64,000 bases of DNA from Tomocerus qinae. Its lineage: Eukaryota; Arthropoda; Collembola; Entomobryomorpha; Tomoceridae. Below the pieces are notes generated by a model. It had not been told where the DNA came from, did not search any database, and saw only the letters and a list, made by a program, of their open reading frames with translations. Made by a program: the position numbers and the translations under genes. The stretch lies in the NCBI GenBank assembly GCA_020055645.1, contig CM034546.1:80104001-80168000 (forward strand). Direction: 5' to 3'. This document shows positions 22,177-55,362 of the stretch, one piece after another; position 1 is the stretch's first letter; every line of letters starts with the position of its first letter.

Positions 22177-22613
22177 AATAAAAACATTAATTATTCGATG
22201 CGTGTGCGCCAGTTTACGTTTATACTTTAACTTTAATAATCATGAGTTTTCACTCCCATTATTCTTGCAAATGGATTATCAGAGTCGATATTTAAATCTC
22301 TTCAATTGTCGCAGTAAATACCATCATAATAATAGTTTATTTAGACAAAATAATGAGTAAATGCACTAGCCTATATACGAATTACAAATTATTCATGAAA
22401 CCTGACTTTTCCGTTACTTAACAAATCATTTCCAGGTATACCGACATATAAAAGAGAAGGCATTCAATTCCCTTACATTTTAGTATTCTCGTTTTTCGAA
22501 GAAGTGTTTATAAACAAGTATCTAGTTCATTTATTCGAGTATTTAATCAATTTATTTACTTCTTCCCTTCCTAATACTTTTAACAATTCAAAAGTTTCAT
22601 TATAATATGCGTC

Positions 22614-31086: not shown

Positions 31087-31644
31087 CTGATTTGCTGCAT
31101 CCAATAAGAAATCCGAGTCACGGTAATGAGAATATAGAGCAGAAGTACGTAGGTAGTGAATAAAGATTTCATTATAGTTACAGTTTGCAGTATCCTCAGT
31201 CCAAACTGGAAAATGGGATCATGGATAAATGTGCCTGGCAATGGATAATTGATTTGGTCACCAAATATTACAAATGTTGAACCAGTCGCTACTGGCAGAA
31301 AAATAACTGGAATAAATAGCACAGTTAACCATGACTCCAATTTGTGGTGACCCGGCAATTCACTACCACACTTGAGTCGAGAACCATCTGCCAAAATTAC
31401 AAATCAAATTAAATCAACATTATTTAATCAATGTTTTAATTGTTAGGTTACAACATTTTTTTTATTTGAAAATGTATTTCTGACGGTACAAATAAAAATA
31501 CGGAATGAATAAAATTGCACTGTCATTTTTTGACGAATCGAAAACATTTGATATTTAATTTTTACAAACGTAGTAGGTAGGTAATGCAGTTAAGATAAAT
31601 ACCTGAAAGGTTTAATAAAAAGCTTATTATGCAGGATATGAATA

Positions 31645-33257
31645 CCGTAATAATCGGACGCGGAATTATTTCGATTTTACTTCCCCTTTTTGGTTGTTAA
31701 TGGTAATAGTTCCCCGTATCGAAATAATTCCGCGTACCTGTACCTAAAAAATTACGAAGAGTAAATGTCGACTCTGCTGTCATCCAAGGATGTACTAAAT
31801 ACATCCAGCCAGCAGATGTCAGCTGAAACAAGCCGTTCAAAGATTCCATCAGGAAACAATACAATATGTGGGTATCCACTCCTGGAAACTTTGAAACTAA
31901 AGGTGGTAATTCAAAGCCACCCTCTTTGAGTGTGGTCTGCTGCTGCCAATTTGAGTTGGATCGTCGAAGCCTGGGATTCCTTAACAGCAGACGTTATTAA
32001 AAAATCCTTCTTCTCTTGTGGAATTTTAAATGCCACGGATGGAAGTCAGGAAAATTTAATAACGGCCTTCAAACCAGGCAAGGATTGTAAAGAAGAAGGG
32101 CGTGAAATGCTACAGCGGCAGTCAGTGGCGGCTCTAGGATTTGCGAGGCCCTGGGCAAAATGTTCGCGCGAGGCCCCATAATAATAATTCACAAATATGC
32201 AAATTATTATATTAAATCAAATCTACGATTTGGCATATGAATACTTAGCGTGAAAATTTTTTATGGTTTTTTGAAGGGTATTGAAATTGAAAACAAAACA
32301 AGTACGTGTACTGAAGTGAGTTTCGGGAAGGACTATATTATGTGATACTTAATTATATCTCAATTACATATATTCGCGCCCAGCGCGAAAAACTTTGTCA
32401 ATTTCAATCCAAGAAAAAATATTTTTTTTGGATTTTGGGGTGGGGCTTTAGCCTATAAGGGTTTCCACCTCAATACGTCCTTTATTCAAAATAAGACCCT
32501 AAAACTCTGTTAAAGACTATGTAGGCGCTACCCGACATTTTAGAATTTGGATATTTTATTCATTTTATTAAAAGTTCTTTATTTCTTTTAAAATTCAAAA
32601 AAAAACAATTAGTGGAAACATAATTGTCTACATCTACTCCTACTGCAATTACGCAGTTTTAGTATCGCAAAATGCTACAAATTTGTGGATTGAAATGCAT
32701 ATAGTAATTCTATAATAATTCTGAGAGATGCTGGCACTTTCGTGTCACCAAAATGTTTTTACTAGATTGCGCGATGTCTACTTTCGGTATACTTTTCTTC
32801 CTTGAATTCTAAAAATTGTTCTGTAATAAAGCTGTAACAAAACGCAAAACCAGTATTTCTGAAGGGAAATCGACACCGACAAGTTGAAATTCTTTCTTTG
32901 TCAAAGCTCTGCGCGAGGCCCTGGGCAACTGCCCAGTCTGCCCATTGGGAAAGCCGCCTCTGAGCGGCAGTACATGCAAATAGAACAGCCCTTAATTCAT
33001 GAGGACGATATTTTATTGCCTTCGGACGAAGAAGACATGGACCTCGATTTAATCGATCCGTTAAATATATATCCCTGTCTTCAGATGATGACCTCTAAAT
33101 ACATTTTTTATAAAACATTTTATCCCATGTATTGAAAATAAATTAAATATTGACTTAATTAAAAGTGCGGAATTATTTCGACATTTTTGGCCTTTTCAGG
33201 AAGTTTTTTATGTGCTTGAAACAATAATTCCGCGCGGAATTATTTCGATTATTACGG
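31645..33257 (+). mobile_element. pogo/Tigger-type element, internally deleted (copy A), split by a hAT-like element
   Basis: Terminal inverted repeats CCGTAATAATCG / CGATTATTACGG, flanked by TA on both sides (31643-31644 and 33258-33259), the target duplication of the Tc1/mariner-pogo superfamily. Subterminal palindromes of CGCGGAATTATTTCG type are at both ends. On the plus strand it retains the C-terminal part of a DDE transposase: K-Y-I-Q-P-A-D-V-S...K-P-F-K-D-S-I-R, then W-I-V-E-A-W-D-S-L and K-S-F-F-S-C-G-I-L-N-A, then an acidic tail (S-D-E-E-D-M-D-L-D). The N-terminal DNA-binding part and the first catalytic Asp residues are missing, so it is non-autonomous. The hAT-like element occupies 32123-32962. 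Confidence 0.85.
32123..32962. mobile_element. hAT-like non-autonomous element nested in the pogo-type element
   Basis: The left end CAGTGGCGGCTCTAGG pairs with the right-end complement CAGAGGCGGCTTTCCC. The same 8-9 bp (AGCGGCAGT) stand on both sides (32114-32122 and 32963-32971), and the empty site is visible in copy B at about 39109-39117. No transposase frame. The 7231 fragment belongs to the same family. Confidence 0.85.
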
Positions 33258-33379
33258 TATTTGTTTTTTACGAAAGTTAGAATTGTATAGAATTTTTTAA
33301 ATTCAATTCTCTCCCACTTTACTGTGCTTGTTGTTTGAACCACTTTTGTGTGAAATTCCAGTACTATGTGCAGAGTTGG

Positions 33380-36716: not shown

Positions 36717-38586
36717 TGCTCATGTATAGATAAACTAAAAATACAAAAGTTAAAAGGAATAATAAGCTGAATGGGTTTGCAGCTAATTGCGCAAAACTTT
36801 TTTTAACATAGCTACTTCAAAGAATAAAATGAGAATAAAAGCAATGCTTTCCCTTTTATTAATCTACCAAACCAAATACTTTCCAAGGACTGCGGGTGCG
36901 GCAGTGGTTCTAAATAATGACGGCCTCCCTTTGGCTGATCAAAATCAAATACGTTTAATTACCACGCGGTCATTTTCTCTGCTCATTATGTTGTCAATTT
37001 CCTAATACACTTCGTAATTATAGTACCATTTACAATTAATTGTAGCGCTTATATTAAATTTCGACCCTGAAAATTGAATTGCAAGAATAATATTACATTT
37101 GGACTTCGGTAGTTACAATAGCAGTTAATATACTTCCATTTTAGGTAACGCTTCAAGAATATTATATAATCGTAACGCGGAAGCGGAAGTATAAGAATTG
37201 TCTTTGGTAGCGAATTTTAGGTAATAATATATATAATAAGGCAGAGTTTGGAACAATATATTATTTAATTTTTTTATGTCATGTCAGCGTTATGGGGCAG
37301 TACAACCCTATTGTAGAGAAAGAGTTGATACTAGTTGGTGAGAAATGGAGTATACAATATTATGGACCATAATAAATGTAGTGCTGTATGTTTCATAATT
37401 TATATAATATATCACATACAGATGGAAGAATTCTACTAATTACTGCCAATGCCATGCCAGTGAAATTCTGCATTGACTTGAGTTATCTCAGAATGCCCAT
37501 CTCGAAATATTTTTAGAATGTATTCAATTAAATATCGGCTGCTTAATATTACAACGTAACAAACCAAATTACCATGGCTGCTACAAAGTAACAAGCCATT
37601 TTATCATGACTACGACAATGTAATAAATCATTGTATCAGGAGAAAGGTTTTCTATATTGTCGCAGCCATGATAATTTGGTTTGTTACGTTGTAATATTAA
37701 AAAGACGATATGTTTGTAATGCCCATAGAAACCTAATAGGTAAGTATATCTATTTTAATCATAATCATGTTAATTGATTTTTTTAAATTTTAATTACTTT
37801 TTGTGCTTGACATAACTTCGAATTAACTTAATATTGCATATAAGCAGTTTAAAATGGTATAATTTCAGTTATGGTCAAACACAATGAATATACCTGCATT
37901 TGTGTTTACAATAAAAAGCATATTCCTTCGAACAGGTTTTAAACAGGGTATTGCGTCTGTATTATTTCTGTATTGTCATAATTTATTGTGTTTGGATTAT
38001 CTGTCTAGCTTTAATATAGGATTTCATTCTAAAATTGAAGTGGTTGTTATTGTTTTCTTTGCATCTCAATTACAAGGTTACATTTGGCATTTGAACCCAA
38101 CACCTGCAGGCAAAGAAACATCTAGTAACAATTAGGTATTAATAGAGATACTCCTTTATTTTTAGTATATATATATATATTATAGTAGACTCAAATCGTA
38201 ATCGTAACTTCTACTGACTATGTGTACAAAGTACAGAAGTAGCATTTAGCCATCCAGAACAATGTGTGCTTAAAGTCGAGCTTTGAATCCATATTGGACC
38301 TTAATTAATAGGAAGGAATATAATTTAGAATTATAAAAAACATTATTTATTTTACTATTTTTATCATTTTGCTGTTATATTGTAAAGAAATGACATGATG
38401 TTTTAGTGCCTTGTGTGGCTATATGTAAAATTACGTGAAATGAGCAACAGTCATAAAATTCAACAGGTGTAAGAGTTCTACAGAAACATAGCATACTAAC
38501 TAATACATCTTAGTATAGCACATATACCTTAGGTAGCTGCATAGTTAGAAGAAACTATAATATTGAGTAGTTCTTTCATGCACTAT
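36717..38586. other. Intergenic between receptor copy and Copia element
   Basis: No supported gene (83-residue frame at 37884-38135 has no recognisable features). Contains the MITE at 37545-37698 and a short (TA)n run at 38168-38180. Confidence 0.35.
37545..37698. mobile_element. MITE with about 37-bp terminal inverted repeats
   Basis: Left AATATTACAACGTAACAAACCAAATTACCATGGCTGC in type; the right-end complement is the same with one change. 154 bp in all. Confidence 0.8.
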
Positions 38587-38616
38587 TGTGATTACATATT
38601 ATTTACAGAACAGATA

Positions 38617-39426
38617 CCGTAATAATCGATATAATTCCGCGTACTGAAATAATTCCGCGTACGCGGAATTATTTCGATTTTACTTCGCCTTTTTGGTTGT
38701 TAATGGTAATAGTTCCGCGTATCGAAATAATTCCGCGTACCTGTATCTAAAAAATTACGAAGAGTAAATGTCGACTCTGCTGTCATCCAAGGAGGATGTA
38801 CTAAATACATCCAGCCAGCAGATGTCAGCTGGAACAAGCCGTTCAAAGATTCCATCAGGAAACAATACAATATGTTGGTAACCACTCCTGGAAACTTTGA
38901 AACTTCTAAAGGTGGTAATTCAAAGCCACACTCTTTGAGTGTAGTCTGCAGTTGGATCGTGGAAGCCTGGGATTCCTTAACAGCAGACTATTAAAAAATC
39001 CTTCTTCTCTTGTGGAATTCTAAATGCCACGGATGGAACCCAGGAGAATTTAATAACGGCATTCAAACCAAGCAAGGATTGTAAAGAAGGGCGTGAAATG
39101 CTACAGCGGCAGTACATGCAAATAGAACTGCCCTTAATTCATGAGGACGATATTTTATTGCCTTCGGACGAAGAAGACATGGACCTCGATTTAATCGATC
39201 CGAAAAATATATATCCCTGTCTTCAGATGATGACCTCTAAATATTTTTATAAAACATTTTATCCCATGTATTGAAAATAAAATAAATATTGACCTAATGA
39301 AAAATAATTCCGCGTATCGAAATAATTCCGCGGGCGCGGAATTATTTCGACATTTTTGGCCTTTTCAGGAATTTTTTTATGTGCTTGAAACAATAATTCC
39401 GCGCGGAATTATTTCGATTATTACGG
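38617..39426 (+). mobile_element. pogo/Tigger-type element, internally deleted (copy B), inside the 5' LTR
   Basis: 810 bp. CCGTAATAATCG / CGATTATTACGG termini with TA on both sides (38615-38616, 39427-39428); the intact 3' LTR shows the empty site with a single TA. On the plus strand it keeps the transposase C-terminus (G-C-T-K-Y-I-Q-P-A-D-V-S-W-N-K-P-F-K, W-I-V-E-A-W-D) in broken frames and lacks the rest. It has the uninterrupted site corresponding to the hAT insertion in copy A. Confidence 0.9.
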
Positions 39427-39622
39427 TAAATGTAATATGATTAATGCTATGAGTAATGACATTCTGTAGAATACATGAATCATTGAGTTTCAGGAATATG
39501 ATGAGTGTACCCTTCTTACAATCAACCAAGAATCTATCCTTGGAATAGAACCCAACCTGAACCTGGAATGGTACAAGCAAGCTCATTGGTTGAGTTTAAC
39601 TTCCAACTTACTCACGACCCAG

Positions 39623-39631
39623 GTATAAATA
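39623..39631 (+). promoter_or_regulatory. LTR TATA box (TATAAATAC)
   Basis: Located in U3, about 90 bp before AATAAAACC at 39711; the same pair is present in the 3' LTR. Confidence 0.6.
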
Positions 39632-39792
39632 CTGGTGCCTACCCTCTGTTAAAATACACTTGCTCACAGACTGTTACTCTGTTAACTTCTTATGTTCTCT
39701 CAGTTGTCTTAATAAAACCTATGTACTTTATTTGACTTATCATCTAAGGTCGTTCTACTTGAATATTCATCATTTATTGAGTATTCATCACA

Positions 39793-39804
39793 TGGTAGCA
39801 GAGC
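39793..39804 (+). other. Primer-binding site, complementary to initiator Met tRNA 3' end
   Basis: TGGTAGCAGAGC begins immediately after the 5' LTR and is complementary to the 3' end of animal initiator methionine tRNA (GCTCTGCTACCA). This is priming from the intact tRNA 3' end, as in plant Copia elements, rather than from an internal half-tRNA as in Drosophila copia. Confidence 0.88.
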
Positions 39805-39955
39805 GTGGTTGATCTCTATTTGCTTAAGGATCGACTCTGTTGTGTGAAGTTTTAATTGACAATTGTAGGACTAAAGTGTGGGACTCTCAGTTCTAAACTG
39901 AAGATACGAACTAATAGTAATTGTTGACAGTTGTAGTGACAATTGCGGTATTACA

Positions 39956-42900
39956 ATGGCAGCGAAACAACGATCTGAAACAATTGAAAAATTGGACGGG
40001 ACCAATTTCAATCGTTGGAAATTCCAGTTGACTCTATGCCTAAGAGCCAACAAACTGTGGGGAATTGTTTCGGGAACTGAAGCACAACCAGCGGACCAGG
40101 GTGCACGTGAGAAATGGGACCAGAATGATGTTGAAGCCATGTCAATCATTTCGTCAACTTTAAGTCCTGCTCAGATGAATCACATCTACACTTGTGATAC
40201 CTCAAAGAAAATGTTTGACAAACTTCTACTAGCCAACTCAGACTCATCATCTCTCAACAAACAGCACACCCTGACGAAGTTTATGACGTATACCATAGCG
40301 AAAGACCAATCTCCTGTGCAAGCCATGGAGGAAATTGAAGAATTGGCTCGTTCATTGAGCGAAATGGGGCTCAAACAGGCAGAGGAAACAATAGTGACAA
40401 AAATTGTGTCGGCTCTTCCTAAACAGTATGCAGCGTTCCAAACTGCATGGGACAGTGTTTCTGTCAAGGAGCAAACGATTGTTAGTTTGCAATCTCGGCT
40501 CAAGCGGGAAGAATTTCGACTAAAAAATGGCAGTGCTGACAGTGCTGGTGTCGACGAAGAAGAAGCTGGTGGGACCAAGGCTTTTCGTTTTAATGCCAAG
40601 GATAAACATTTTAAGGGAAAAGGGAAGGACAATCACCCTAAAGGTAAAGTAAAGTGCTTCTATTGTGATAAGGAAGGCCATTTTAAACGTGACTGCAGGA
40701 AGCTCAAAAGGGACCGTCAAAATCGCAATAATGATAACTGGAATAAAAAAGATGACTCCCGAGGCAGAAGAAATGGTCAACAAGGCAAAAACGACGATGA
40801 ACATATTAATGCATTTACGGGTTGCAGCCAAAACAATATGGTCAATTTAGAGTGGATCAGTGACTCAGGGGCGACTTTGCATGTTTGCGGGAATATGGAA
40901 TGGTTTACGTCTTTTCAATCATTTGATGACTCGAACGCTCCAAGTAATATGTTGGCAGACAACGTTACAGTAAAGCCTGCAGGGAAAGGAGTTGTTACTG
41001 CTGCAGCTCGATTAGGAAGAACTTGGGAAATCGTGACTTTAAGTGATGTCTTATATATTCCTGGAGGGGCTAATTTATTTTCTGAAATCGTGATGGCAAA
41101 GAAGGGATATACGATTGTCAGAAAAGGTGATACTACTCGATTCTTGCGTGACGACAAGAAGCCAGGGCCAATTGCCAAATTTCAGAACAATGCTTATATC
41201 ATGCAATTTCTACCAGTATATCAGAATATACGAGCAAACTTATCTACTTTTCTGTCGAAAACATCATGTTCTAAGCTTTGGCACAGGCGCTTAAATCACA
41301 TCAATCACCGATATATTCAGGATACAGCCAGAAAACAAGCAGTTAAAGGGCTCCCTATCTCTGAAGTTAGTGAAAAGTTTCAGTGTGAAGATTGTCACTT
41401 AGGAAAGCAGTGTAGAAACTCATATCCAAGAATCACTGATGGAAAAACGTCAAAGGTTGGTGAAATTATTTATGCAGACTTAATGGGCAAAATGCCTGTG
41501 GCATCTCTTGGTGGCGCAAAGCATGTACTACTTCTAAAGGACCATGCCTCTACATTTCGTATGGCATATTTTCTAAAAACCAAGGATGAAACTGCTGCAG
41601 GGGTCAAGAACTTCATCAACTTCATCAAAAATCAAACCGGGAATACGGTAAAAACTTTTGTTTCTGATAATGGTCCCGAATTTGTAAACAAGGAATTGAA
41701 CTCACTCTTTTCTGAATATGGTATCGAACATGCTAAGTCTGCGCCTTACTCTCCTCAAACAAATGGAAAAATTGAGAGAGAGAATAAAACAATAAAAGAT
41801 TCTGCCAGAACAATTTTGCTGGCATCTGGTTTGACGGAATTTATGTGGGCTGAAGCGTTAGCTACTACTGTTTATATCCACAATCGGATGTTAAACAGTA
41901 AATGCAAAGAAATTACTCCTTATGAAGCAGTATTTGGGGACAAGCCATCTATGGAACATCTTCGAATCTTTGGCTCACTGGCTTACGCACATATACCTAA
42001 AATAAAAAGGCGCTGCTGGAATCAGAAAAGTAAGCAATGTTTTTTGGTGGGATACTCTAGCAAGATGAACTACACCTACAGACTCTATGACCCGACTGAA
42101 AGAAAGGTTTTCGAAGCTCACGATGTTATCTTTTATGAGGAAAAATCCATAGTTCAACGAAGAACTGCTAACAGTGATACCACTTCAACACCTCAGGTTA
42201 CAATTCGGTCGTTTGATAATACAGTGACTGACAATAGTGCGCAGGAAAATCTTAACAATGTTGCAAATGACAATGCCAATAATGATGCAAGTGACATTGA
42301 AGATGAAGAGAAACGTTTAAACGTAAATGATGATGCAGGTGACATTGAAGATGAAGAGAAACGTTTAAACGTAAATGATGATGCAAGTGACATGGACGAT
42401 GAAGCGGAACGATTGAACGTAAATGATTTTCTTAGTCCTTCATCCTCATTCAACATTAAGAGAAAGCAAGGATCCACATCCAAACATCAGATTCGAGTGC
42501 AAACGCCGGACGGCGAGTTTGTGCCCGACGTTCCAGAAGGGGTTTCAGAAATTGTCATCCCGAAAACAAAATCCAAGGGAAAGAAAGGATGGTTTATCCC
42601 GGAAATTCTGGACTCAAAACTACGTCCGCGCCCACAGCCGTCAACGTCTCTAATGGCTTCTAGATTGATTCAAGAACCTCTTAGTTACAAGGAAGCGTTA
42701 GAGTGTCCACAGTCAAATGAATGGGAAGCTGCCATTGCTGACGAATTTGCAAGCCAAGAAAGCAACAAAACATGGGAAATCGTTGACCGCAAAGAGGGTG
42801 TTAAACTATTAGACACGAAGTGGGTGTTTAAAATCAAAACACATGCTGACGGGACAATTGAACGATACAAAGCAATAGTTATTCGCGGCTATCTACAGAA

Positions 42901-43939
42901 ACACGGTATAGATTATTTTGAAACATTTGCATCTGTGTGTCGGTACGAATCAATCCGTGTACTTCTCTGCATTGCTGCATCAGAGAACTTCTTCATCGCT
43001 CAGTTTGATGTCAAAACAGCCTTCTTGCATGGGGATTTAGAAGAGGAAATCTATGTCAAAATACCGCAGGGATATCAAGTTAAAGGAAACAAAGTGTTAA
43101 GACTCCTCAAAACTATTTATGGTCTAAAACAGTCACCTCGCGGTTGGTATGAAAAATTCAAGAAATTCTTAATCGAACAAGGGTTAAATCCATCCCAGAG
43201 TGACCCCAGTGTTTTCATCGGAAGTTTTGAAGGGGCCATACTATATATAGCTCTCTACGTCGACGATGGTTTAGTAATGTCGCCTAGCGAAGAAAGTGTA
43301 AACTCACTACTACAAACTCTTTCACAAACATTCTCTATCACTAGTAATGCTCCAAACACTTATGTGGGACTTGAACTATACCGTCACAACTCGGGGGCTA
43401 TTACTATTACTCAACATAAATATGTTAGGAACTTACTTCAAAAGTTTCATATGGAAGAGTGCAATCCAAGCAGTGTTCCCATTCAACCTTACACTGAACT
43501 GAATATTCCTACTGAAACAAACGATGAGTTACCATACAGACAATTAGTTGGATCGTTGATTTTTCTCGCCAAATGCACTCGGCCCGATATTTCATTTGCA
43601 GTGTCCAAACTGGCGCAATTCATGAGTGCTTATGATGAGTCACATTGGACAGCTGCTAAAGGAGTCCTAAGATATCTAAAAGGAACCACCGACTACGGAA
43701 TCACCTATAAACCAGGGGGTCAAGTCATTCTTGAAGGATACACAGATTCTGATTACGCAGGTGATAAAATCTCTCGGAAATCGACAACGGGTGTGTTATT
43801 CAATGTCAATGAATCACCTGTGTCCTGGACTAGCCAAAAACAACCGTGTGTCGCCTTATCCTCTACAGAAGCGGAGTACATTGCTGTTTCCTCAGCTGCT
43901 CGGGAAGCAGTTGGCTTAGATTTTTTCTGCACGAATTGA
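39956..43939 (+). CDS. Copia Gag-Pol polyprotein, frame-broken near its end
   Basis: 1327 residues. Gag N-terminal region (residues 1-220, starting with the L-D-G-T-N-F-N-R-W motif of Copia Gag), CCHC zinc knuckle at about 234-247 (C-F-Y-C-D-K-E-G-H-F-K-R-D-C), aspartic protease D-S-G at about 303, integrase H-H-C-C finger (L-W-H-R-R-L-N-H.., C-E-D-C) followed by the DDE core (A-D-L, S-D-N-G-P-E-F, N-G-K-I-E-R-E), a repetitive acidic linker (three D-I-E-D-E-E-K-R-L-N-V-N-D units at about 42288-42424), reverse transcriptase with Y-V-D-D (about 43257-43268), then RNase H (T-D-S-D-Y-A-G-D, S-T-E-A-E-Y-I-A). Usual Copia order and length. The frame ends in RNase H because of a one-base shift near 43912; the rest of RNase H continues in the next frame. 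Confidence 0.95.
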   Translation: MAAKQRSETIEKLDGTNFNRWKFQLTLCLRANKLWGIVSGTEAQPADQGAREKWDQNDVEAMSIISSTLSPAQMNHIYTCDTSKKMFDKLLLANSDSSSLNKQHTLTKFMTYTIAKDQSPVQAMEEIEELARSLSEMGLKQAEETIVTKIVSALPKQYAAFQTAWDSVSVKEQTIVSLQSRLKREEFRLKNGSADSAGVDEEEAGGTKAFRFNAKDKHFKGKGKDNHPKGKVKCFYCDKEGHFKRDCRKLKRDRQNRNNDNWNKKDDSRGRRNGQQGKNDDEHINAFTGCSQNNMVNLEWISDSGATLHVCGNMEWFTSFQSFDDSNAPSNMLADNVTVKPAGKGVVTAAARLGRTWEIVTLSDVLYIPGGANLFSEIVMAKKGYTIVRKGDTTRFLRDDKKPGPIAKFQNNAYIMQFLPVYQNIRANLSTFLSKTSCSKLWHRRLNHINHRYIQDTARKQAVKGLPISEVSEKFQCEDCHLGKQCRNSYPRITDGKTSKVGEIIYADLMGKMPVASLGGAKHVLLLKDHASTFRMAYFLKTKDETAAGVKNFINFIKNQTGNTVKTFVSDNGPEFVNKELNSLFSEYGIEHAKSAPYSPQTNGKIERENKTIKDSARTILLASGLTEFMWAEALATTVYIHNRMLNSKCKEITPYEAVFGDKPSMEHLRIFGSLAYAHIPKIKRRCWNQKSKQCFLVGYSSKMNYTYRLYDPTERKVFEAHDVIFYEEKSIVQRRTANSDTTSTPQVTIRSFDNTVTDNSAQENLNNVANDNANNDASDIEDEEKRLNVNDDAGDIEDEEKRLNVNDDASDMDDEAERLNVNDFLSPSSSFNIKRKQGSTSKHQIRVQTPDGEFVPDVPEGVSEIVIPKTKSKGKKGWFIPEILDSKLRPRPQPSTSLMASRLIQEPLSYKEALECPQSNEWEAAIADEFASQESNKTWEIVDRKEGVKLLDTKWVFKIKTHADGTIERYKAIVIRGYLQKHGIDYFETFASVCRYESIRVLLCIAASENFFIAQFDVKTAFLHGDLEEEIYVKIPQGYQVKGNKVLRLLKTIYGLKQSPRGWYEKFKKFLIEQGLNPSQSDPSVFIGSFEGAILYIALYVDDGLVMSPSEESVNSLLQTLSQTFSITSNAPNTYVGLELYRHNSGAITITQHKYVRNLLQKFHMEECNPSSVPIQPYTELNIPTETNDELPYRQLVGSLIFLAKCTRPDISFAVSKLAQFMSAYDESHWTAAKGVLRYLKGTTDYGITYKPGGQVILEGYTDSDYAGDKISRKSTTGVLFNVNESPVSWTSQKQPCVALSSTEAEYIAVSSAAREAVGLDFFCTN

Positions 43940-44223
43940 TGTATCCACAGCTGGACCCTACTACTTTACACGTGGACAATCAAAGCGCTATACGATTAGC
44001 AAAGAATCCAGAAATGCACTCACGAACAAAGCATATTGATGTGCGATATCATTACATTCGCGAGCAACTGGAAAACAAGGAGATTGCAGTGTCTTATCTA
44101 CCTACAACTAAACAACCAGCGGATGGTCTCACGAAAGCTCTTCTTAAGGGAAAGCAAGAGGAAAGTCGCAGCAGACTCGGTGTTACAGCCACAAAGCTAC
44201 GGGGATCTCTTCATCCAAAGTTG
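43912..44223 (+). pseudogene. RNase H C-terminal part, displaced to another frame
   Basis: From W-L-R (43912) onward the conserved RNase H tail is readable: L-H-V-D-N-Q-S-A-I-R-L-A-K-N-P, then H-I-D-V-R-Y-H-Y-I-R, then A-D-G-L-T-K-A-L. It runs without a stop into the env-like region, so in the undamaged element pol and env may have been one reading frame. Confidence 0.85.
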
Positions 44224-45582
44224 ATGTATGGAACTCTACTTTTATTTTTGGCAATGTTTGCTGCTCCCACTACAGCATCTGAAATAACACCAGTACTTTG
44301 GCGAAAAAGTGATGTGCCTATCACCACCGGTCATTACCAAGTCAATCTACAAATTAATTTAGTCAACCCTTGCGATGTTCTGCTGATGAACACTCTTCAT
44401 TTGGATTTAAAATATAAAGCTTATTCCCGCTGCCAGGATGACTACCAAAGCATCGTGTTGGATCATCTCCATCAAATGTGCCCTCGGCAGTGGACGCAGA
44501 TGTCAACTCGGAACAAGCGGTTTGCAAATATACTGATAGCCGTACTTGTTATTTCCATTGTGGCTAGCATCGGTCTTGGAATAGCAACCACATCGATGGC
44601 ATCCATAAACTCAGGAAAAATTTCTTCCCTAGAAACACGAAGCGACGAACTTGGTCACATGGCAAACACTATGGAAGGCCAGATAAAGGCCAACTATGAC
44701 AAAATACAAGAACTCACAACTAGTTTCAACCAAGCCATAGAAAACATGTCTGTTTTGCAAAATGATCACGAAGAGTTTAAGGGAAAGAGTATTGCGACAA
44801 ATTATGTTATCTCCCATCTTGTTAGCAGATTTCACATTGGAAAAACGGTGATCCAAGAAGCACAGCATCTCTGGAAACAAGGAAAAGTTAGTTCCTCATT
44901 TTTAGATTACTTTAAAGGGACGCTACCATGTGGAGATGACTGTCCAATTCATTTAGCACAACCTCAGAAATGCGCGATATCAGAAAATGGGAGAAAACTT
45001 CTGCTGGATTTTACCGTACCTCTGGTTAGCAAGGATCTCACCCTTGTCGACGCGGACTCATTCGATCTTATGATGCGGCATGATCAACAAACATGTAGGG
45101 TAACATACAATGGACCGAAGAACGCTATTTTGTCGGCTAAGGACCAGTGCATCTATTCTGTGAACATAAAACACCCGAATAGACATGATTTGATTCTGGC
45201 ACCAACTCGTGGATGCATGCCAAGACCGGAACAGCGTATCCAAACAAAACACTTCCGAGTGGAAGAATGTCAAGACACACAGGAATTGGATCATTTAGAT
45301 TTCGTTCAAATCAAGCCCCACAATGGACAATATTATATTTACTGCCCTGACTCCAATCTAACAGTAGAAGGTATTCAAGAAAAGTGTCCTGACGAAATCT
45401 TCTCACTACCACTTCGTTCCAACTTCAGCATCAATAATCTACAGTTTAACGGCTCCCGGATCAGCCTATCGCGTCATGCAGCAATCGACCCAATCCTTAC
45501 AGTAAAGACCAACTGGCATCTCCAGCCAAAAGTAAATTGGACATCTCTAAAAATAAAGAAAAATGCCACCGAGAAATTTTAA
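44224..45582 (+). CDS. Envelope-like glycoprotein ectodomain (class I fusion-like)
   Basis: Begins at an internal ATG coding a signal-peptide-like leader (M-Y-G-T-L-L-L-F-L-A-M-F-A-A-P-T-T-A-S). Then a Cys-containing N-terminal part, a furin-type site R-N-K-R (44509-44520), a hydrophobic Ala/Gly-rich segment right after it (44521-44600; fusion-peptide-like), and a heptad-like helical stretch (about 44600-44770), the layout of a class I fusion protein. The second half is Cys-rich with N-glycosylation sites (N-M-S, N-L-T, N-F-S, N-G-S, N-W-T, N-A-T). It would mediate membrane fusion if functional. I cannot assign a known env family: the errantivirus/baculovirus-F spelling after the cleavage site is not matched. 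Ends at an in-frame TAA (45580-45582) before the membrane anchor. Confidence 0.78.
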   Translation: MYGTLLLFLAMFAAPTTASEITPVLWRKSDVPITTGHYQVNLQINLVNPCDVLLMNTLHLDLKYKAYSRCQDDYQSIVLDHLHQMCPRQWTQMSTRNKRFANILIAVLVISIVASIGLGIATTSMASINSGKISSLETRSDELGHMANTMEGQIKANYDKIQELTTSFNQAIENMSVLQNDHEEFKGKSIATNYVISHLVSRFHIGKTVIQEAQHLWKQGKVSSSFLDYFKGTLPCGDDCPIHLAQPQKCAISENGRKLLLDFTVPLVSKDLTLVDADSFDLMMRHDQQTCRVTYNGPKNAILSAKDQCIYSVNIKHPNRHDLILAPTRGCMPRPEQRIQTKHFRVEECQDTQELDHLDFVQIKPHNGQYYIYCPDSNLTVEGIQEKCPDEIFSLPLRSNFSINNLQFNGSRISLSRHAAIDPILTVKTNWHLQPKVNWTSLKIKKNATEKF

Positions 45583-45765
45583 GAAGTTCACATTGATGAT
45601 TTTCACCACGTATATAATTATTGGTCTACAGTAGGATGTATTACTGTAATTTTTATTTTAATAATAGTACTTTACTGCCTGGCTAAGAAAAATAAGAAGC
45701 CAATGAAAATATCTGTAATTGCTAAACCTGCTGAAAGCATTCCAATGCAAGTATTAAGTGAATGA
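45583..45765 (+). pseudogene. Env-like membrane anchor and tail beyond an in-frame stop
   Basis: The same frame continues 60 codons after TAA. It contains a transmembrane segment (G-C-I-T-V-I-F-I-L-I-I-V-L-Y-C-L), a basic stop-transfer K-K-N-K-K and a short cytoplasmic tail ending at TGA 45763-45765. This is what a type I envelope should end with, so the TAA is most likely a nonsense mutation; readthrough is the alternative. Confidence 0.75.
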
Positions 45766-45942
45766 TATTTGCATGTGAAAACTTATTAGGTTAAGAATAT
45801 GAATTAGTATTGCAATAATTTGTTCTCGTATAATCTCTTCGTAATGATGGTTTCTTTTACTGGTAATAGTTGTTTGGGCATACAGACATTTACCTTTCCA
45901 ATTTTTTGTAATTTCATAGTTCTAATTGATTCTTAATTGATT

Positions 45943-45951
45943 GAGGGAAAG
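45943..45951 (+). other. Polypurine tract
   Basis: GAGGGAAAG directly before the 3' LTR TGTG start; plus-strand priming site. Confidence 0.75.
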
Positions 45952-46345
45952 TGTGATTACATATTATTTACAGAACAGATAAATGTAATATGATTAATGC
46001 TATGAGTAATGACATTCTGTAGAATACATGAATCATTGAGTTTCAGGAATATGATGAGTGTACCCTTCTTACAATCAACCAAGAATCTATCCTTAGAATA
46101 GAACCCAACCTGAACCTGGAATGGTACAAGCAAGCTCATTGGTTGAGTTTAACTTCCAACTTACTCACGACCCAGGTATAAATACTGGTGCCTACCCTCT
46201 GTTAAAATACACTTGCTCACAGACTGTTACTCTGTTAACTTCTTATGTTCTCTCAGTTGTCTTAATAAAACCTATGTACTTTATTTGACTTATCATCTAA
46301 GGTCGTTCTACTTGAATATTCATCATTTATTGAGTATTCATCACA
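45952..46345 (+). repeat. 3' LTR of the Copia element, intact
   Basis: 394 bp, TGTG...CACA. Only one difference from the 5' LTR seen (A for G at about 46095). Carries the same TATAAATAC and AATAAA signals. Confidence 0.95.
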
Positions 46346-46437: not shown

Positions 46438-47254
46438 CACACATGCTAGTTTCTGGCTCGGCGAGCCAGGCTGGTTCGATTTTTCAGCGAGCCGAGCCGA
46501 GCCACTGGCTCGGCTCGGCTCGGCTCGCTGAAATTTTTTTATAGACCTGGCTCGGCTCGCTGAAATTTTTTTTATAGACCTGGCTCGGCTCGCCCTATTG
46601 GATGATGTGGCTCGGCTCGCCCTATTGGATGATGTGGCTCGGCTCGCCCTATTGGATGATGTGGCTCGGCTCGCTCAAAAATTTTCCCGCCATTTTTATT
46701 TTAAACCTACAGGCTTCTTAACCATTAGTGGCTCGATTTTTCAGCGAGCCGAGTCATGGACCCGGCTCGGCTCGGTCGAAATTTTTTTAATGACCTGGCT
46801 CGGCTCTGCTCGGCTCGCCAAAATGTTTTTTAATTGCTGGCTCGGCTCGCCAAAATGTTTTTTGAGGATCTGGCTCGGCTCGGCTCGCTCAATGTTGTTG
46901 GAGGTCAGTGGCTCGGCTCGCTGAAATTTTTTTTATAGACCTGGCTCGGCTCGCCCTATTGGATGATGTGGCTCGGCTCGCTCAAAAATTTTCCCGCCAT
47001 TTTTATTTTAAACCTACAGGCTTCTTAACCATTAGTGGCTCGATTTTTCAGCGAGCCGAGCCATGGACCCGGCTCGGCTCGGTCGAAATTTTTTTAATGA
47101 CCTGGCTCGGCTCGGCTCGCCAAAATGTTTTTTAATTGCTGGCTCGGCTCGGCTCGCCAAAATGTTTTTTGAGGATCTGGCTCGGCTCGGCTCGCTCAAT
47201 GTTGTTGGAGGTCAGTGGCTCGGCTCGGCTCGCTGACCTAAACTAGCATGTGTG
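46438..47254. mobile_element. hAT-like MITE packed with GGCTCGGCTCG repeats
   Basis: Terminal inverted repeats CACACATGCTAGTTT / AAACTAGCATGTGTG with an exact 8-bp target duplication GTTATTAT (46430-46437 and 47255-47262), diagnostic of hAT-type insertion. The interior is a GC-rich array of GGCTCGGCTCG words separated by T-rich spacers, arranged as a higher-order repeat: 46566-46910 is largely repeated at 46929-47230. Frames across it are repeat artefacts. Confidence 0.88.
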
Positions 47255-47570: not shown

Positions 47571-50438
47571 ATGGTTGTTTCAACAAAACTAGAAGGTAAA
47601 CAGTGTATATTTTAAATTTTAACAACGGTAGAAACGCAATAGCAATATTGTATGCATAATTGATAATAATTCAATTCAATGTAAGCTAAATGTAATGTTT
47701 TGTCTATTTCATTCATTCCACAGTAAAATATGTGTCGGACTTGATACGTATTCTGCTTCGTTTCCCAACGTTTATAGCCCTTTTGAACAAATTTGGAGTA
47801 GTTCTTTTGGAAAACTATAAACTATCTGAAGATATTGACCACTTGCAAATTCGGCCCAAGCAGGAATTATGGACCCAATGCTACTTATGAAAAAATTGTT
47901 AAGGTTCTCAACCTACTTGGACTACAGTCAGTTTCAGGTATGTGTACTTATTGTATATGAAATTCATAACTAGTAGTTAGTAGTAATACTTATAATTTGC
48001 AGAATATCAAAATAGCAATATTTCAGAATTTTAAAATTATATTGGGTTGATAAACTCTATACCACATATTATTATTATCCTTATCATTTTTATTTTTACT
48101 GCAACTTCAAATTGACCCCATGAAAAACATACAAAAAGCATCCATATATTTTATAATGCATTAAAATGTTGGGTTCGGGGTAAAAGGATAGAGATTTTCC
48201 TTTATTGATGAATGACATTCTATTGGGTCTTCCAGTACTGTATTACAATGGCAATGGTATAGTGTAACTAAACTTAATTATTTTTTTCTAAACCAATATT
48301 ATTATTGATTTTAATCAGGCATTCATCAAATCATCAGCAACGTTTCATTTTTAAAAACTTACATTTGCACAGTGCAATTGCTTAACACTTAAAACTAGAT
48401 TTATTGACTTTGAGTAGACATTGGTATATATATAGAGATTGATAGTCAGTGTCTGATCGAATAGATTTACATAATTAATTCATTATTATTAATCCTCACA
48501 CTCTCACTACTCATTATCCTCATAGTACTATTAAATCAATAATTTGGTCTCTATTTAAGTGGATAGAAATAAACACCCTCATTGGTCCTACCATCATACA
48601 TCATACATCATATAATCATACATAATCAAAAGCATATTTCCAAAGTATCAATATCACCATTTGGTACCATGGGCTAAACGAAATCCTGGCTAATCATTAA
48701 TCATTCATAGACTAAGTATTCATAGCAGAAAAAAGCTTTTTTCTGCTATAAGACACACAAAGTCCATTTACCAATCTGAAGGCAAATTTGAATGTCTATA
48801 CTGCCAAACTATTGCGCCACGAATTGGCGCCTGTTCTCAAACTCCAATCCACCTGAGGTGGTCATAATTTAGTCATTGTCATTGGCTGTCAACTAGCCAA
48901 TAGTAATGATTAAATTATGAGAGATGGCATCAAATATAACAAAGACTTTGGGCATATTAAGCTGTTTCAGGCTTAATCTTAGTATATGTTAATCATTAAG
49001 CAAAAAAACAAAGAATAAAACAAATTGTGAATAATTGTATCGACTTTATTTATAGATGAGGTTGAAGAGAATAGAAGAAGGTTGATGGATGCAGAAGGCC
49101 GAACAATAAAGTCAACAAAAATTGAATGTAATAATAATAAACTAAACCACAAATACAAAAACTTCATACAAAACAAACAGTTGTAAGTTTTATTCCTATA
49201 TTATAGACAAGGACATCCTCGAGATAAGAAAGATCTTAATGAAAGATTTGAAATTCACTTCTGAGCTTAACAAATTTGCCCAATTAATGGGGATTGAGAC
49301 AGCAAACGAGTTACCGAAGACAAATTGCAACAAAATTTTGTACAAGTTTCATGAACGGTTTCCAGAACGTGCAGTATTTAAACACTTGATTGACGTTTTG
49401 AAAAACCAGATGGGTCATACTAAATTGGCTGGTAAGGGTGACTGGAGAGTGGAGACTTGCAACTCCACAAATAAATATCCATAAAAATCAATTTTTCTTA
49501 TCCTAGTTTGCTCTTTTTAAATTCCAGATGATATTCAGGCGAAATTTAATGTTCCTAGAAAAACAAACGTGACACCAAAATTTGAAACGAAATATTCTCA
49601 CGGAATTCTTCCTACGCCACCAAAAATCGAACCCCATTCTAAGAAAGTTACCACTTTTAAAGATCAACAATGTCAAACCGTGACAGTTACTGATTCAACA
49701 CCTTCCACCTCGAAAGCAGCTAAAAATGCCCAAACTTCCAAAGTTCAATTTTATGATTATTTACCCGGAGGCTACAAAAATCAATTTGAAGAGATGGGGA
49801 AATCAGATTATGAGCCAAAATTTATTGAAATTAAAGATAATGAGAAAGGATATTCTTATGAAAAATTGTTTGGTAAATTCCTAACTGAATTTACTCACAA
49901 AATCGAAATTCAAGATCCCTACCTATCAGGTAATCCAAGTTTGCAACTGAATTTTCTATTTAGTATTAAAATTAAATTGGGTCTGGTCATAACTGTATTA
50001 TTGTCTGCATTTATTTTCAGGTCAACAATTTTGAAATATTACTCACGCTTATATCCAAAAACTGCCCTAACCTGAAGGAACTTTCAATTATAACTACCAA
50101 TTTTTCCATCAAAAGATTTAATAAACTAAAGAAACACTTGAACATTAAAATCAATTTGGAACATAGCTGTATCATCCATGACCGTTATCTCAAGTAAACA
50201 GTAATAATTTTGATATTAAGAACTTTAGTGAATGCTTACTGTTAAGTTGGTAATTAATTTTTATGTTAATTTACTTTGCAGGATTTGGTATTTGAAAACT
50301 GTCGCAGTAGCTTTAGGACGGGGTTTAGATATTTACAAAGGAAGAAATCCAGGCAAATTCAGTGCAATTAAGAATTTCCACTGCCTCGGGATGACAGTGA
50401 GAGATGCGAAATTGTCTGTTTATGACAATGTTGCTTAA
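47571..50438 (+). CDS. Death-fold plus MIT_C (PLD-like) domain protein, with two apparent frame breaks
   Basis: Exons by eye: 47571-47595, 47724-47937, 49056-49127, 49207-49431, 49528-49929, 50021-50175, 50282-50438. The first five joins are phase 1 (G|GT-type donors), the last phase 2. N-terminal helical death-fold-like (CARD/DED type) segment in exon 2; a death-domain-like segment in exon 4 (F-A-Q-L-M-G-I...F-P-E-R-A-V-F-K-H-L-I-D-V-L, ending K-L-A-D-D-I); a disordered linker; then MITD1-type MIT_C motifs Y-S-Y-E-K-L-F-G, I-E-I-Q-D-P-Y, V-N-N-F-E-I-L, I-H-D-R-Y-L and L-G-R-G-L-D-I-Y-K. The MIT_C fold is a PLD-like membrane-binding domain. No MIT domain is present. Two breaks: near 47863 within exon 2 (one base) and at the 49929/50021 join (phase mismatch). 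It may be a pseudogene, a mis-assembled base, or mis-modelled splicing. Confidence 0.6.
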
Positions 50439-52477: not shown

Positions 52478-55362
52478 ATGACTACTCCACGGACCAAATC
52501 TCCAGGACCTGTGACCCCTCGAAAAGACGATAAGGATGAATCCTTTTGGGACAAATTTGGTACTATTGGAAGAAAGAAGCGAATGAAAGAAGGTAGAACT
52601 AAAAATTCATTTCATTTGTACCTTTTTTTGACTATTTTGTTATCAGATGGTCACTTAAACTGTACAAGTATAATATAAAAATAGGCGTTAAAATGAAATT
52701 CTATAGGTACTTCCATCACTCAAAATTACTAAAATATTATTTTTTAAGGTTTTTATTGTTTTCTTAATTGCAGTGCAAGCCTTTGAAGAAGAAGGGAAAA
52801 ATGCAATCGATTCACCAGGAAGCCCGATGTCATTTGATATTCCCCCTGAGGACTACGACCTTTGTAAGTTCACATTTCCAAATATGAATACAATAAATAT
52901 CCGTTTGTCCCAAATAAAATCCTCAAGCCTGTAAACCTGTATGTAGTCTCCATTTTAAATATATTGAACATCAATGATTCCTTCAAAATAATTTTAAATG
53001 TGCTGAATGTAGTGTAAGATATGTATCAGGAAATTATCAAAAAATAACAAACCTAAGTAATTTGATTCAGAGTAATTTTATTACCTATCAATATTGGCAT
53101 TAGAAAATTATTTCGTAAACGTTTTGATGATGATAATTTTGGATAATGCTAATATAATATACTTCAAAATTGTTATTAAAACCATACCATACCCCCAACC
53201 CAACCACATTTACAAGCATCTCATCAGTTAACTATTGATTTATTGCAATTATATTTAATTTTTCTTATGCGTAGCCGTTTAGTGAAATATATTTTTAAGT
53301 TGATGCTGATTTTCTAGAACTAAAAAATTAGTGTCATTATTGAGGCGACAGACATTTTTATAGACATTTTCAAAGTTTATTATTAAGAGTTAATCCAAGC
53401 GTCTCATAATAACTCATCGACGGACTATAATTCCAGAAATAGTAGGAAAATTTTATTTAATATACACGATAGAAAATAAATGAACATAAATAAATAAATA
53501 ATGTAAATTTTTGATTGAAAATTTTATTACTACAGCCGAAGGGGAGGAACGCTCATTAATTGAAAGACGCAGTTACGCTGACCCTAAGTTACAACAGTTG
53601 GTGGCTCTTTTAATCGACTGGATAAATGACGAACTTGCAGATCAACGCATCATTGTCAAGAGCATTGAAGACGATGTCTATGATGGACAAGTCCTGCAAA
53701 AATTACTCGGTAAAATATTATTAGTAGGATTCATATGCAAAAATTTCCTAAAAGTAATTTAACTTCTCAGTTTATTTGATTTGATATTTTTGTCTTTGTT
53801 ATAATTTTTCAAAATATAGAAAATTCAATTTATCCTAACAAAAATAGCGTGGTGTAAGTATTTGTCTGAATATTGGTTTCATATAACTAAATTTCATATA
53901 ACTATGCTAAAAATTGCCAAAAGAACAAAAATATGTAACAATGGTTTTCTGAAATCGTAGTTTTCTATAAAAAATGACCGCTAAAAAGATGTTAATTGTA
54001 ACAATACCGAAATATACATTTTAAATCCAGAAAAGCTGACTGGGCAAAAGTTGGAAGTAACTGAAGTGACACAGTCTGAAGAGGGCCAACGGACCAAACT
54101 ACGAATAATTATTGGTGCAGCTAATCAAGTACTTGGATTCCCACGTTGGTCCCAGTCGAAATGGAGCGTTGATTCCATCCATTCTAAGAGTCTTGTTGCA
54201 ATTTTATATCTTTTGGTTCATCTAGTCCGGCACTTTCGAGCTCCACTTCGCCTTCCGGAGAATGTCAACGTGGAAACCGTCGTGGTCAAAGTAATTACAA
54301 TTGTATTCACGTATTTTACCATTACTAGACTTCTGCCCGTCCTCTTGGCACCTAAATGTTATTCATCAAAACAAAATGTACCTACCTACTCGGCTATCCT
54401 TGCCTACTCGGTATGAAATAGGATACCGTATATAGTTTTGTGTCATACCGAAAAACATTTTTTTTCACGCAGCATTTTTTGGAACTGATGTGAATTGAAC
54501 TATAGTATTTTTCATTGAAAATCTTCTTGAATTTCAACAAATGACGTTATAGCACAATTTAATCTCTTTTCAAATGAATTAATGCAATTTTCTTTAATAG
54601 GAGTTTATATTAATAGACACAATACTTGTGTGTACAATATACTTGCAAGTTTTACTCATATTTATACGTATCTAATAGAAAAAGAATGGAAAATTGGAAT
54701 ATCGACGGGTGACAGAAGAGATTACTTCAACGTATGACGAGTTTGGCATGCGATGCGAAAGAGATGCTTTTGATGCGTTACTGGATCACGCTCCTGACAA
54801 GTTACAAGTTGTCAAAAAGGTAGGCCCCTAACAATTATGGGGTTCACTTATATACTAAAAGGCTTTTAATATAATATTTTTTAATTTCCTTGCAGAGCCT
54901 TGTAACTTTTGTCAACAAGCATTTAAACAAGATAAACCTGGAAGTTTTGGACATTGACAGCCAGTTTCATGATGGAGTTTATTTGACTCTAATGATGGGC
55001 CTTCTGGAAGGATATTTTGTGCCCCTATCTGAATTTCATCTGACCCCTAAAGATTTTGAACAAAAGGTCTACAATGTATCCTTCGCATTCGAATTAATGC
55101 AAGATGCTGGATTAAATAAGCCAAAAGCCCGTCCAGAAGGTGAGGATTTGTTTCTATTTACCACAACCTAATTAATTTGTGTAATTTATTTTTATCGTTA
55201 TAATAAAAAATTGTGTTTGTTTAGTAATAATGCTGTATAGAGCATAAATAAAGCCATTTTAATATTTACTTTATTTTGGGCTTAGATATCGTCAATTTGG
55301 ATCTGAAATCCACTCTTCGAGTTCTTTACAACTTGTTTGCCAAGTACAAGAATTTGGGTTGA
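52478..55362 (+). CDS. parvin: Parvin (focal-adhesion actin-binding protein), seven exons
   Basis: Exons 52478-52592, 52774-52863, 53536-53709, 54031-54290, 54679-54819, 54896-55139, 55286-55362; all joins keep frame (phases 1,1,1,0,0,1), giving 366 residues, close to vertebrate parvins (about 372). Order: basic/Pro-rich N-terminus; a conserved linker with a D-P-K-L-Q block; first calponin-homology domain (L-I-D-W-I-N-D-E-L, V-D-S-I-H-S-K-S-L-V-A-I-L); linker with E-R-D-A-F-D-A-L-L-D-H-A-P-D-K-L; second CH domain (L-V-T-F-V-N-K-H-L-N-K, G-V-Y-L-T-L-M-M-G-L-L-E-G-Y-F-V-P-L, F-A-F-E-L-M-Q-D-A-G-L); end L-R-V-L-Y-N-L-F-A-K-Y. Family role: binds integrin-linked kinase and PINCH (IPP complex) and paxillin at integrin adhesions. 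All splice sites are GT-AG. Nothing looks damaged. Confidence 0.95.

What the first reader, a model, noticed from the sequence alone, without database searches (positions are those of the whole stretch)
38587..46345. Copia-type retrotransposon that has gained an envelope-like gene
The element has the Copia domain order (integrase before reverse transcriptase) and canonical LTR, PBS and PPT. It also has about 1.5 kb after RNase H with signal peptide, R-N-K-R cleavage site, hydrophobic fusion-like segment, heptads, glycosylation sites and a C-terminal anchor. Env capture is well known for gypsy/BEL elements in animals and for Sireviruses in plants; in animal Copia it would be an independent origin of a retrovirus-like element.
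Basis: partly seen in the sequence, partly recalled or inferred. Interest (0 to 1): 0.9.

Follow-up and report, generated by a model that had tools for sequence, protein, structure and literature searches.

The report
Animal Copia retrotransposon carrying viral fusion gene
A mobile element of the Copia type in an animal genome, and many relatives of it, carry a conserved gene that looks like the cell-entry (fusion) protein of paramyxo-like viruses, so a group of genome parasites thought to stay inside one cell seems to have become virus-like.

Summary
Window 38587-46345 is a Copia element: 394-bp LTRs with 1 difference, Copia gag, integrase before RVT_2 reverse transcriptase, then about 1.5 kb encoding an Env. 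Of 120 listed pol relatives, 27 carry this Env in frame behind RNase H; with the window they form one side of a branch in the RT tree (28 rows, 86/86). In the window's own genome 64 of 72 merged RT loci have an Env within 3 kb downstream. Env dN/dS is 0.03-0.12 in five comparisons of diverged copies. The predicted structure matches paramyxo-/pneumovirus F (351 of 452 residues aligned); among viral models arthropod-virus glycoproteins rank first. The window copy is broken (frame breaks in RNase H and before the anchor); another copy has an unbroken 1970-aa frame and identical LTRs. Cleavage, fusion and infectivity are inferred, not shown. Ten paper searches listed no report, by title and abstract start, of an Env in animal Copia elements.

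The parts
38587..38616 (+). 5' LTR, first part
   Evidence: matches start of 3' LTR at 45952
38617..39426 (.). 810-bp insert in the 5' LTR with terminal inverted repeats and a TA duplication (DNA-transposon-like), not part of the element
39429..39792 (+). 5' LTR, second part
   Evidence: 1 difference from the 3' LTR
39793..39804 (+). primer binding site TGGTAGCAGAGC (initiator-Met type; the tRNA assignment is recalled)
   Evidence: sequence
39956..43939 (+). gag-pol reading frame (1327 aa): Copia gag, CCHC, integrase, RVT_2; leaves its frame inside RNase H
43940..44190 (+). remainder of RNase H, in the frame of the 43846-45582 ORF (limits approximate)
   Evidence: resembles the start of P0004, by eye
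44224..45579 (+). Env ectodomain (452 aa), F-like class I fusion protein
44509..44520 (+). R-N-K-R cleavage motif (Env residues 96-99)
44521..44598 (+). hydrophobic fusion-peptide-like stretch (limits approximate)
44644..44877 (+). long helix, heptad-repeat core by analogy with F (Env residues 141-218)
   Evidence: AlphaFold2 model
45583..45762 (+). juxtamembrane, membrane anchor and tail of Env, in another frame in this copy
   Evidence: in frame in relatives
45940..45951 (+). polypurine tract
   Evidence: sequence
45952..46345 (+). 3' LTR (394 bp)

Best explanation
This is a recently inserted, now broken member of a lineage of animal Copia (Pseudoviridae-type) elements whose ancestor acquired an F-like class I fusion glycoprotein gene and has kept it by selection. 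In relatives gag, protease, integrase, RT, RNase H and Env form one reading frame. The Env part begins with a signal peptide that sends it into the ER. A furin-type protease cuts it at R-x-K/R-R into an F2-like part of about 80 residues and an F1-like part of about 410 residues. The new N-terminus is the fusion peptide, the following long helix is the heptad-repeat core, and the C-terminal segment anchors it. The protein would coat Copia particles and let them enter other cells (for example germ line from soma) or new hosts. Shown: anatomy, homology, in-frame linkage, purifying selection between diverged copies, predicted fold. Inferred: cleavage, fusion, particle envelopment and spread; also whether Env is made from the full polyprotein or from a spliced RNA.
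For: Copia identity: (best PDB match Copia VLP protein, 8.2e-17). Env in frame behind RNase H in 27 of the 120 listed pol relatives, including Folsomia candida P0114 and Orchesella dallaii P0061. One clade: the 28 Env rows are one side of a branch, 86/86; with one Env-less-looking row, 100/99. Env and RT trees of 24 rows share 8 of 21 splits; 5 of 6 starred RT groups and 7 of 8 starred Env groups recur in the other tree. 12 cysteines in 26 of 26 rows with those columns filled; R/K-x-K/R-R site in 25 of 33 rows; hydrophobic anchor in 27 of 35 rows. Own genome: 95 Env matches, 73 merged Env loci, 64 with RT upstream; 14 of 95 matches lie in open frames of 1600 aa or more. dN/dS 0.058 (window-L003), 0.053 (window-L005), 0.115 (window-L004), 0.033 (L006-L007), 0.035 (L006-L008). 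Fold: the 50 listed PDB rows are paramyxo-/pneumovirus F in both programs; the viral library is led by an arthropod-virus glycoprotein, with baculovirus F and paramyxovirus F among the first ten.
Confidence: 0.87

Rival explanations
1. The Env is kept for a role other than cell entry, such as blocking superinfection by receptor interference, or aiding vesicle-like transfer of Copia capsids between cells of one animal.
For: No infectivity was shown. Copia capsid transfer between cells is described for Drosophila (PMC11835246, start of the abstract in the listing).
Against: The fusion machinery, including cleavage site, fusion peptide and anchor, is conserved at a median 34% pairwise identity; a receptor-blocking role alone would not need these (inference).
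Confidence: 0.1
2. Chimera: an Env from a gypsy or BEL element, or from an endogenous RNA virus, lies by chance behind a Copia element, or the assembly is wrong.
For: The window copy has frame breaks and a nested insert.
Against: 64 of 72 merged RT loci in the genome have Env downstream, other contigs and two named springtail proteins show the same fusion in one frame, and LTRs bracket both parts.
Confidence: 0.01
3. The extra region is an 'env-like' ORF of the plant Sirevirus sort, with general features but no fusion fold.
For: The window Env alone has no significant Pfam or PDB sequence match.
Against: Profile search puts 21 F chains on top; the predicted fold matches F over 351 of 452 residues; Foldseek E 5e-10.
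Confidence: 0.02

Closest known systems
Copia / Pseudoviridae elements of animals (Copia, GalEa and others)
   Same: gag, protease, integrase before RVT_2, RNase H, LTR, Met-type PBS
   Different: Those described carry no Env (recalled; PMC3587641 has no occurrence of env). Of 77 Env-less rows outside the clade, 42 end 84-98 residues after the RT/RH match; here about 500-600 residues follow
Atlas virus and nematode belpaoviruses (PMC9094657, passages read)
   Same: LTR element with a single Gag-Pol-Env polyprotein frame and an Env related to RNA-virus glycoproteins
   Different: BEL/Pao backbone and a class II phlebovirus-like Env; here a Copia backbone and a class I F-like Env
TelKA elements of bdelloid rotifers (PMC5408684, passages read)
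   Same: Env of paramyxovirus F type (Pfam Fusion_gly) captured by an LTR element
   Different: A retrovirus-like rotifer lineage, Env described as ORF3; no sequence comparison with it was made here
Errantiviruses (gypsy and relatives) and baculovirus F
   Same: F-type class I Env (recalled); baculovirus F models are among the best structural matches
   Different: Ty3/gypsy backbone with integrase after RT (recalled)
Glycoproteins of arthropod mononegaviruses (lispiviruses and others)
   Same: Best structural match in the viral library (Sanxia water strider virus 4, E 1.2e-9)
   Different: Free RNA viruses; only 11% identity over the structural alignment, so the donor is not proved
Plant Sireviruses (Copia with env-like ORF)
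   Same: Copia backbone with an ORF after pol
   Different: Plant hosts; whether such plant ORFs encode an envelope is described as unclear (PMC5408684); not compared here

Membership tests
Pseudoviridae / Copia | integrase N-terminal to RT in one polyprotein | tested here: met
   rve 500-600, RVT_2 937-1177
Pseudoviridae / Copia | Copia-type RT (RVT_2) and gag (Retrotran_gag_2) | tested here: met
   8.1e-59 and 3.3e-25; Copia VLP protein 8.2e-17
Pseudoviridae / Copia | paired LTRs, PBS, PPT, target duplication | tested here: met
   394-bp LTRs, 1 difference; duplication has one mismatch in the window copy and is exact in the second copy; PBS and PPT by reading
Retrovirus-like element (class I Env) | signal peptide, basic cleavage site, fusion peptide, heptad helix, C-terminal anchor | tested here: met
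   in the window copy the anchor is out of frame
Retrovirus-like element (class I Env) | membrane fusion and spread between cells | not testable with these tools
   needs experiments
Paramyxo-/pneumovirus F fold | overall F fold | tested here: met
Pfam Fusion_gly (PF00523) | score above the curated cutoff | tested here: not met
   P0053 15.3 bits against 29.8; 2 of 34 members match at E up to 0.1
Errantivirus / Metaviridae | integrase C-terminal to RT | tested here: not met
Belpaoviridae (Atlas-like) | class II phlebovirus-like Env on a BEL/Pao backbone | tested here: not met
   Copia backbone; class I F-like predicted fold
Sirevirus | position in the Sirevirus RT clade | not tested
   no labelled Sirevirus was put in the tree

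The most novel reading that the evidence does not exclude
A whole group of infectious, enveloped retrovirus-like viruses arose inside animal Pseudoviridae: one capture of an F-type fusion protein (perhaps from an arthropod mononegavirus of lispivirus kind), kept since then in a single Gag-Pol-Env polyprotein with an internal signal peptide, and still active in springtails and other hosts. It would be an origin of retrovirus-like viruses independent of those in Retroviridae, gypsy/errantiviruses and BEL.
Probability: 0.55. Interest if true: 0.92.

Novelty: new variant of a known kind. Interest (0 to 1): 0.82.

Why it matters
Capture of an Env is the step that turns an LTR retrotransposon into a retrovirus. 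It is documented for gypsy and BEL elements; for Copia I know only of the disputed plant Sirevirus ORF. A Copia lineage with a conserved F-type fusion protein under strong purifying selection gives an independent replicate of this transition, with recent copies in a held genome, so that timing, donor and expression strategy of an Env capture become testable. It also bears on how Copia elements could move between species.

Tried and rejected
Single-sequence searches of the window Env in Pfam and PDB gave nothing significant; NCBIfam with four of the proteins neither. Scans of viral contigs and genome contigs found no relatives, so Env-carrying sequences came only from the protein database and the window's own genome. 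Splice sites: one donor-like site at 40107 and weak acceptor-like sites at 44221 and 44276, too weak to decide how Env is expressed. A Met within 15 residues upstream of (or at the start of) the signal core is present in 18 of 30 rows; this does not decide between a polyprotein and a spliced RNA, since a Met may lie inside the core or farther upstream. The Mantel test is weaker than the shared clades: r 0.58, 30 of 5000 permutations as high. A test of one clade did not run, as the rows already form one side of a branch. Chimera was rejected. The host was not identified: the genome has no name; ORFs with a CH domain (parvin-like by my reading, below Pfam's cutoff) and MIT_C fit an animal. A genome-wide LTR copy count could not be obtained. 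In one search minus-strand loci were not turned round, so its rows for L002, L004, L006 and L007 are void; redone. Rows dropped: for the 112-row tree 9 of the 120 listed relatives and P0007, whose RT/RH match is short; for the 75-row tree also P0054, P0056, P0057, P0058 (they end 0-4 residues after the RT/RH match, so Env cannot be judged) and 33 distant rows (plant, algal, oomycete and one pseudoscorpion). P0077 was kept and counted as Env-less. The 112-row tree, with the truncated rows counted as Env-less, needs 6 label changes.
Full report
What is there. Window 38587-46345 holds one LTR element. The 3' LTR is 45952-46345. The 5' LTR carries an 810-bp insert with inverted ends and a TA duplication; outside it the LTRs differ at 1 of 394 sites. 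The 1327-aa ORF 39956-43939 matches Retrotran_gag_2, zf-CCHC, Pol_BBD, gag_pre-integrs, rve, SH3_retrovirus and RVT_2 in Copia order; the best PDB match is the Copia VLP protein. The frame then breaks inside RNase H; the next ORF (43834-45582, stop to stop) contains the rest of RNase H and, without a stop, the Env ectodomain. The anchor and tail follow in another frame at 45583-45762. The element is therefore young by its LTRs but broken in this copy (or in this assembly).

Env is real and conserved. A search with the 452-aa ectodomain found 6 proteins, and with their alignment 7, among them P0007, in which RT, RNase H and Env are one 870-aa protein. A search with pol residues 900-1327 listed the best 120 of 5818 proteins; an Env profile hits 27 of these 120, C-terminal to RNase H in each, E 1e-21 to 1e-226. 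The start of the Env match lies 74-146 residues after the end of the RT/RH match in these rows and P0007. Of 77 Env-less rows outside the clade whose match reaches the end of the query part, 42 end 84-98 residues after that point, 4 earlier, and 31 run 110 residues or more beyond it without an Env match; the 31 are named plant, algal, oomycete or pseudoscorpion gene models. Two Env carriers have organism names: Folsomia candida (P0114) and Orchesella dallaii (P0061), both springtails; the other 25 carry none.

Architecture. Across 35 Env rows, 12 cysteines are present in 26 of 26 rows where all these columns are filled; 25 of 33 rows have R/K-x-K/R-R at the cleavage site and 32 of 33 have K/R/E-R there; 27 of 35 have a hydrophobic anchor (the other 8 end earlier or, in the window, leave the frame). 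Counted from window residue 20, the part before the cut is 80-82 residues in the 7 rows measured; the part after it is 408-423 in the 6 relatives among them.

One capture. In the careful RT tree of 75 rows the 28 Env rows (27 and the window) are one side of a branch, 86/86; together with P0077, which ends without an Env, 100/99. Rows P0054, P0056, P0057 and P0058 were left out as truncated. In the quick tree of 112 rows with them the clade has 33 rows (28 Env), support 99. Env and RT trees of 24 rows share 8 of 21 splits; 7 of 8 starred Env groups and 5 of 6 starred RT groups recur in the other tree (among them window-P0018, P0061-P0073, P0037-P0053 and the four-row group of P0050), and the two that do not recur conflict only with unstarred forks. 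Env evolves faster: median pairwise identity 34% (540 pairs) against 50% for RT/RH (378 pairs).

In the window's genome (334 Mb, 115 contigs) the Env search gave 95 matches and the RT search 102. Merged, they are 73 Env and 72 RT loci; 64 of 72 RT loci have Env within 3 kb downstream and 64 of 73 Env loci have RT upstream, median distance 384 bp. 14 of 95 Env matches lie in open frames of at least 1600 aa. A second copy of the window's family is 99% identical in Env with a 1970-aa open frame, identical LTRs and an exact 5-bp duplication (AAACC). These counts are lower bounds, since only the best candidates are scored.

Selection. By a Nei-Gojobori count in my own script, Env of window against L003 has dN 0.072, dS 1.24 (329 codons), against L005 0.069 and 1.31 (292), against L004 0.197 and 1.72 (402), L006 against L007 0.044 and 1.34 (439), L006 against L008 0.049 and 1.39 (438). 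Ratios are 0.058, 0.053, 0.115, 0.033 and 0.035, so Env is kept by selection. Close pairs do not show it clearly: L003-L005 0.053 and 0.080 (ratio 0.66), L007-L008 0.005 and 0.032 (0.16), window-L002 5 nonsynonymous and 1 synonymous difference, as expected for copies after insertion. Window against L006-L008 and the other cross pairs had saturated dS. dS above 1 is only roughly estimated.

Mechanism. The most likely reading is an entry protein: ER targeting by the internal signal peptide, cleavage, fusion peptide release, heptad trimer, anchor. That relatives read pol, and many gag, through Env in one frame suggests a single polyprotein; the search by pol would miss Env in another frame. Atlas virus, a belpaovirus, has such a polyprotein with a class II Env (PMC9094657, passages). 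A spliced RNA is not excluded (weak sites).

Known and new. F-type Env capture is known in bdelloid TelKA elements (PMC5408684, passages); errantiviruses took an Env likely from baculovirus (stated in PMC12440569, passages). Ten searches listed no paper on an Env in animal Copia by title and abstract start; two of them listed nothing at all and several listings were cut (for example 15 of 2,513). The passages shown of PMC12440569, PMC12992720, PMC13172572, PMC2774666, PMC3587641 and PMC11673190 do not mention one. Subscription papers, preprints outside PMC and repeat databases were not searched, so prior notice is possible.

Noticed in passing
38617-39426 and 31643-33259: DNA-transposon-like insert (TA duplication, inverted ends CCGTAATAATCG) inside the 5' LTR; two parts of it match a longer related sequence at 31.6-33.3 kb at 87-91% identity.
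   Followed up: partly
46472-47233: Array of repeats rich in GGCTCGGCTCG units shortly after the element.
   Followed up: no
37532-37711: Inverted repeat with 69-nt arms and a 42-nt spacer.
   Followed up: no
42278-42427: Short direct repeat in the pol linker between integrase and RT (54 nt, 87% identity).
   Followed up: no
53985-54416 and 49521-50075: Exon-like ORFs: weak CH domain (parvin-like by my reading, below Pfam's cutoff) and MIT_C; they fit an animal genome.
   Followed up: partly
22584-25318: Several ORFs that look like multi-pass chemoreceptor exons by my reading; no Pfam match for the two that were tested.
   Followed up: partly
window genome G000, for example C1:78859222, C3:48933383, C1:64430205: Further Env-carrying Copia families at about 31-44% Env identity, with groups of copies of equal score and open frames up to 1995 aa, hence probably several recently active families in one genome.
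   Followed up: partly
P0077 (database protein): RT in the Env clade (basal) but the protein ends 115 residues after the RT/RH match without Env: possible ancestral or lost state, or Env in another frame.
   Followed up: no
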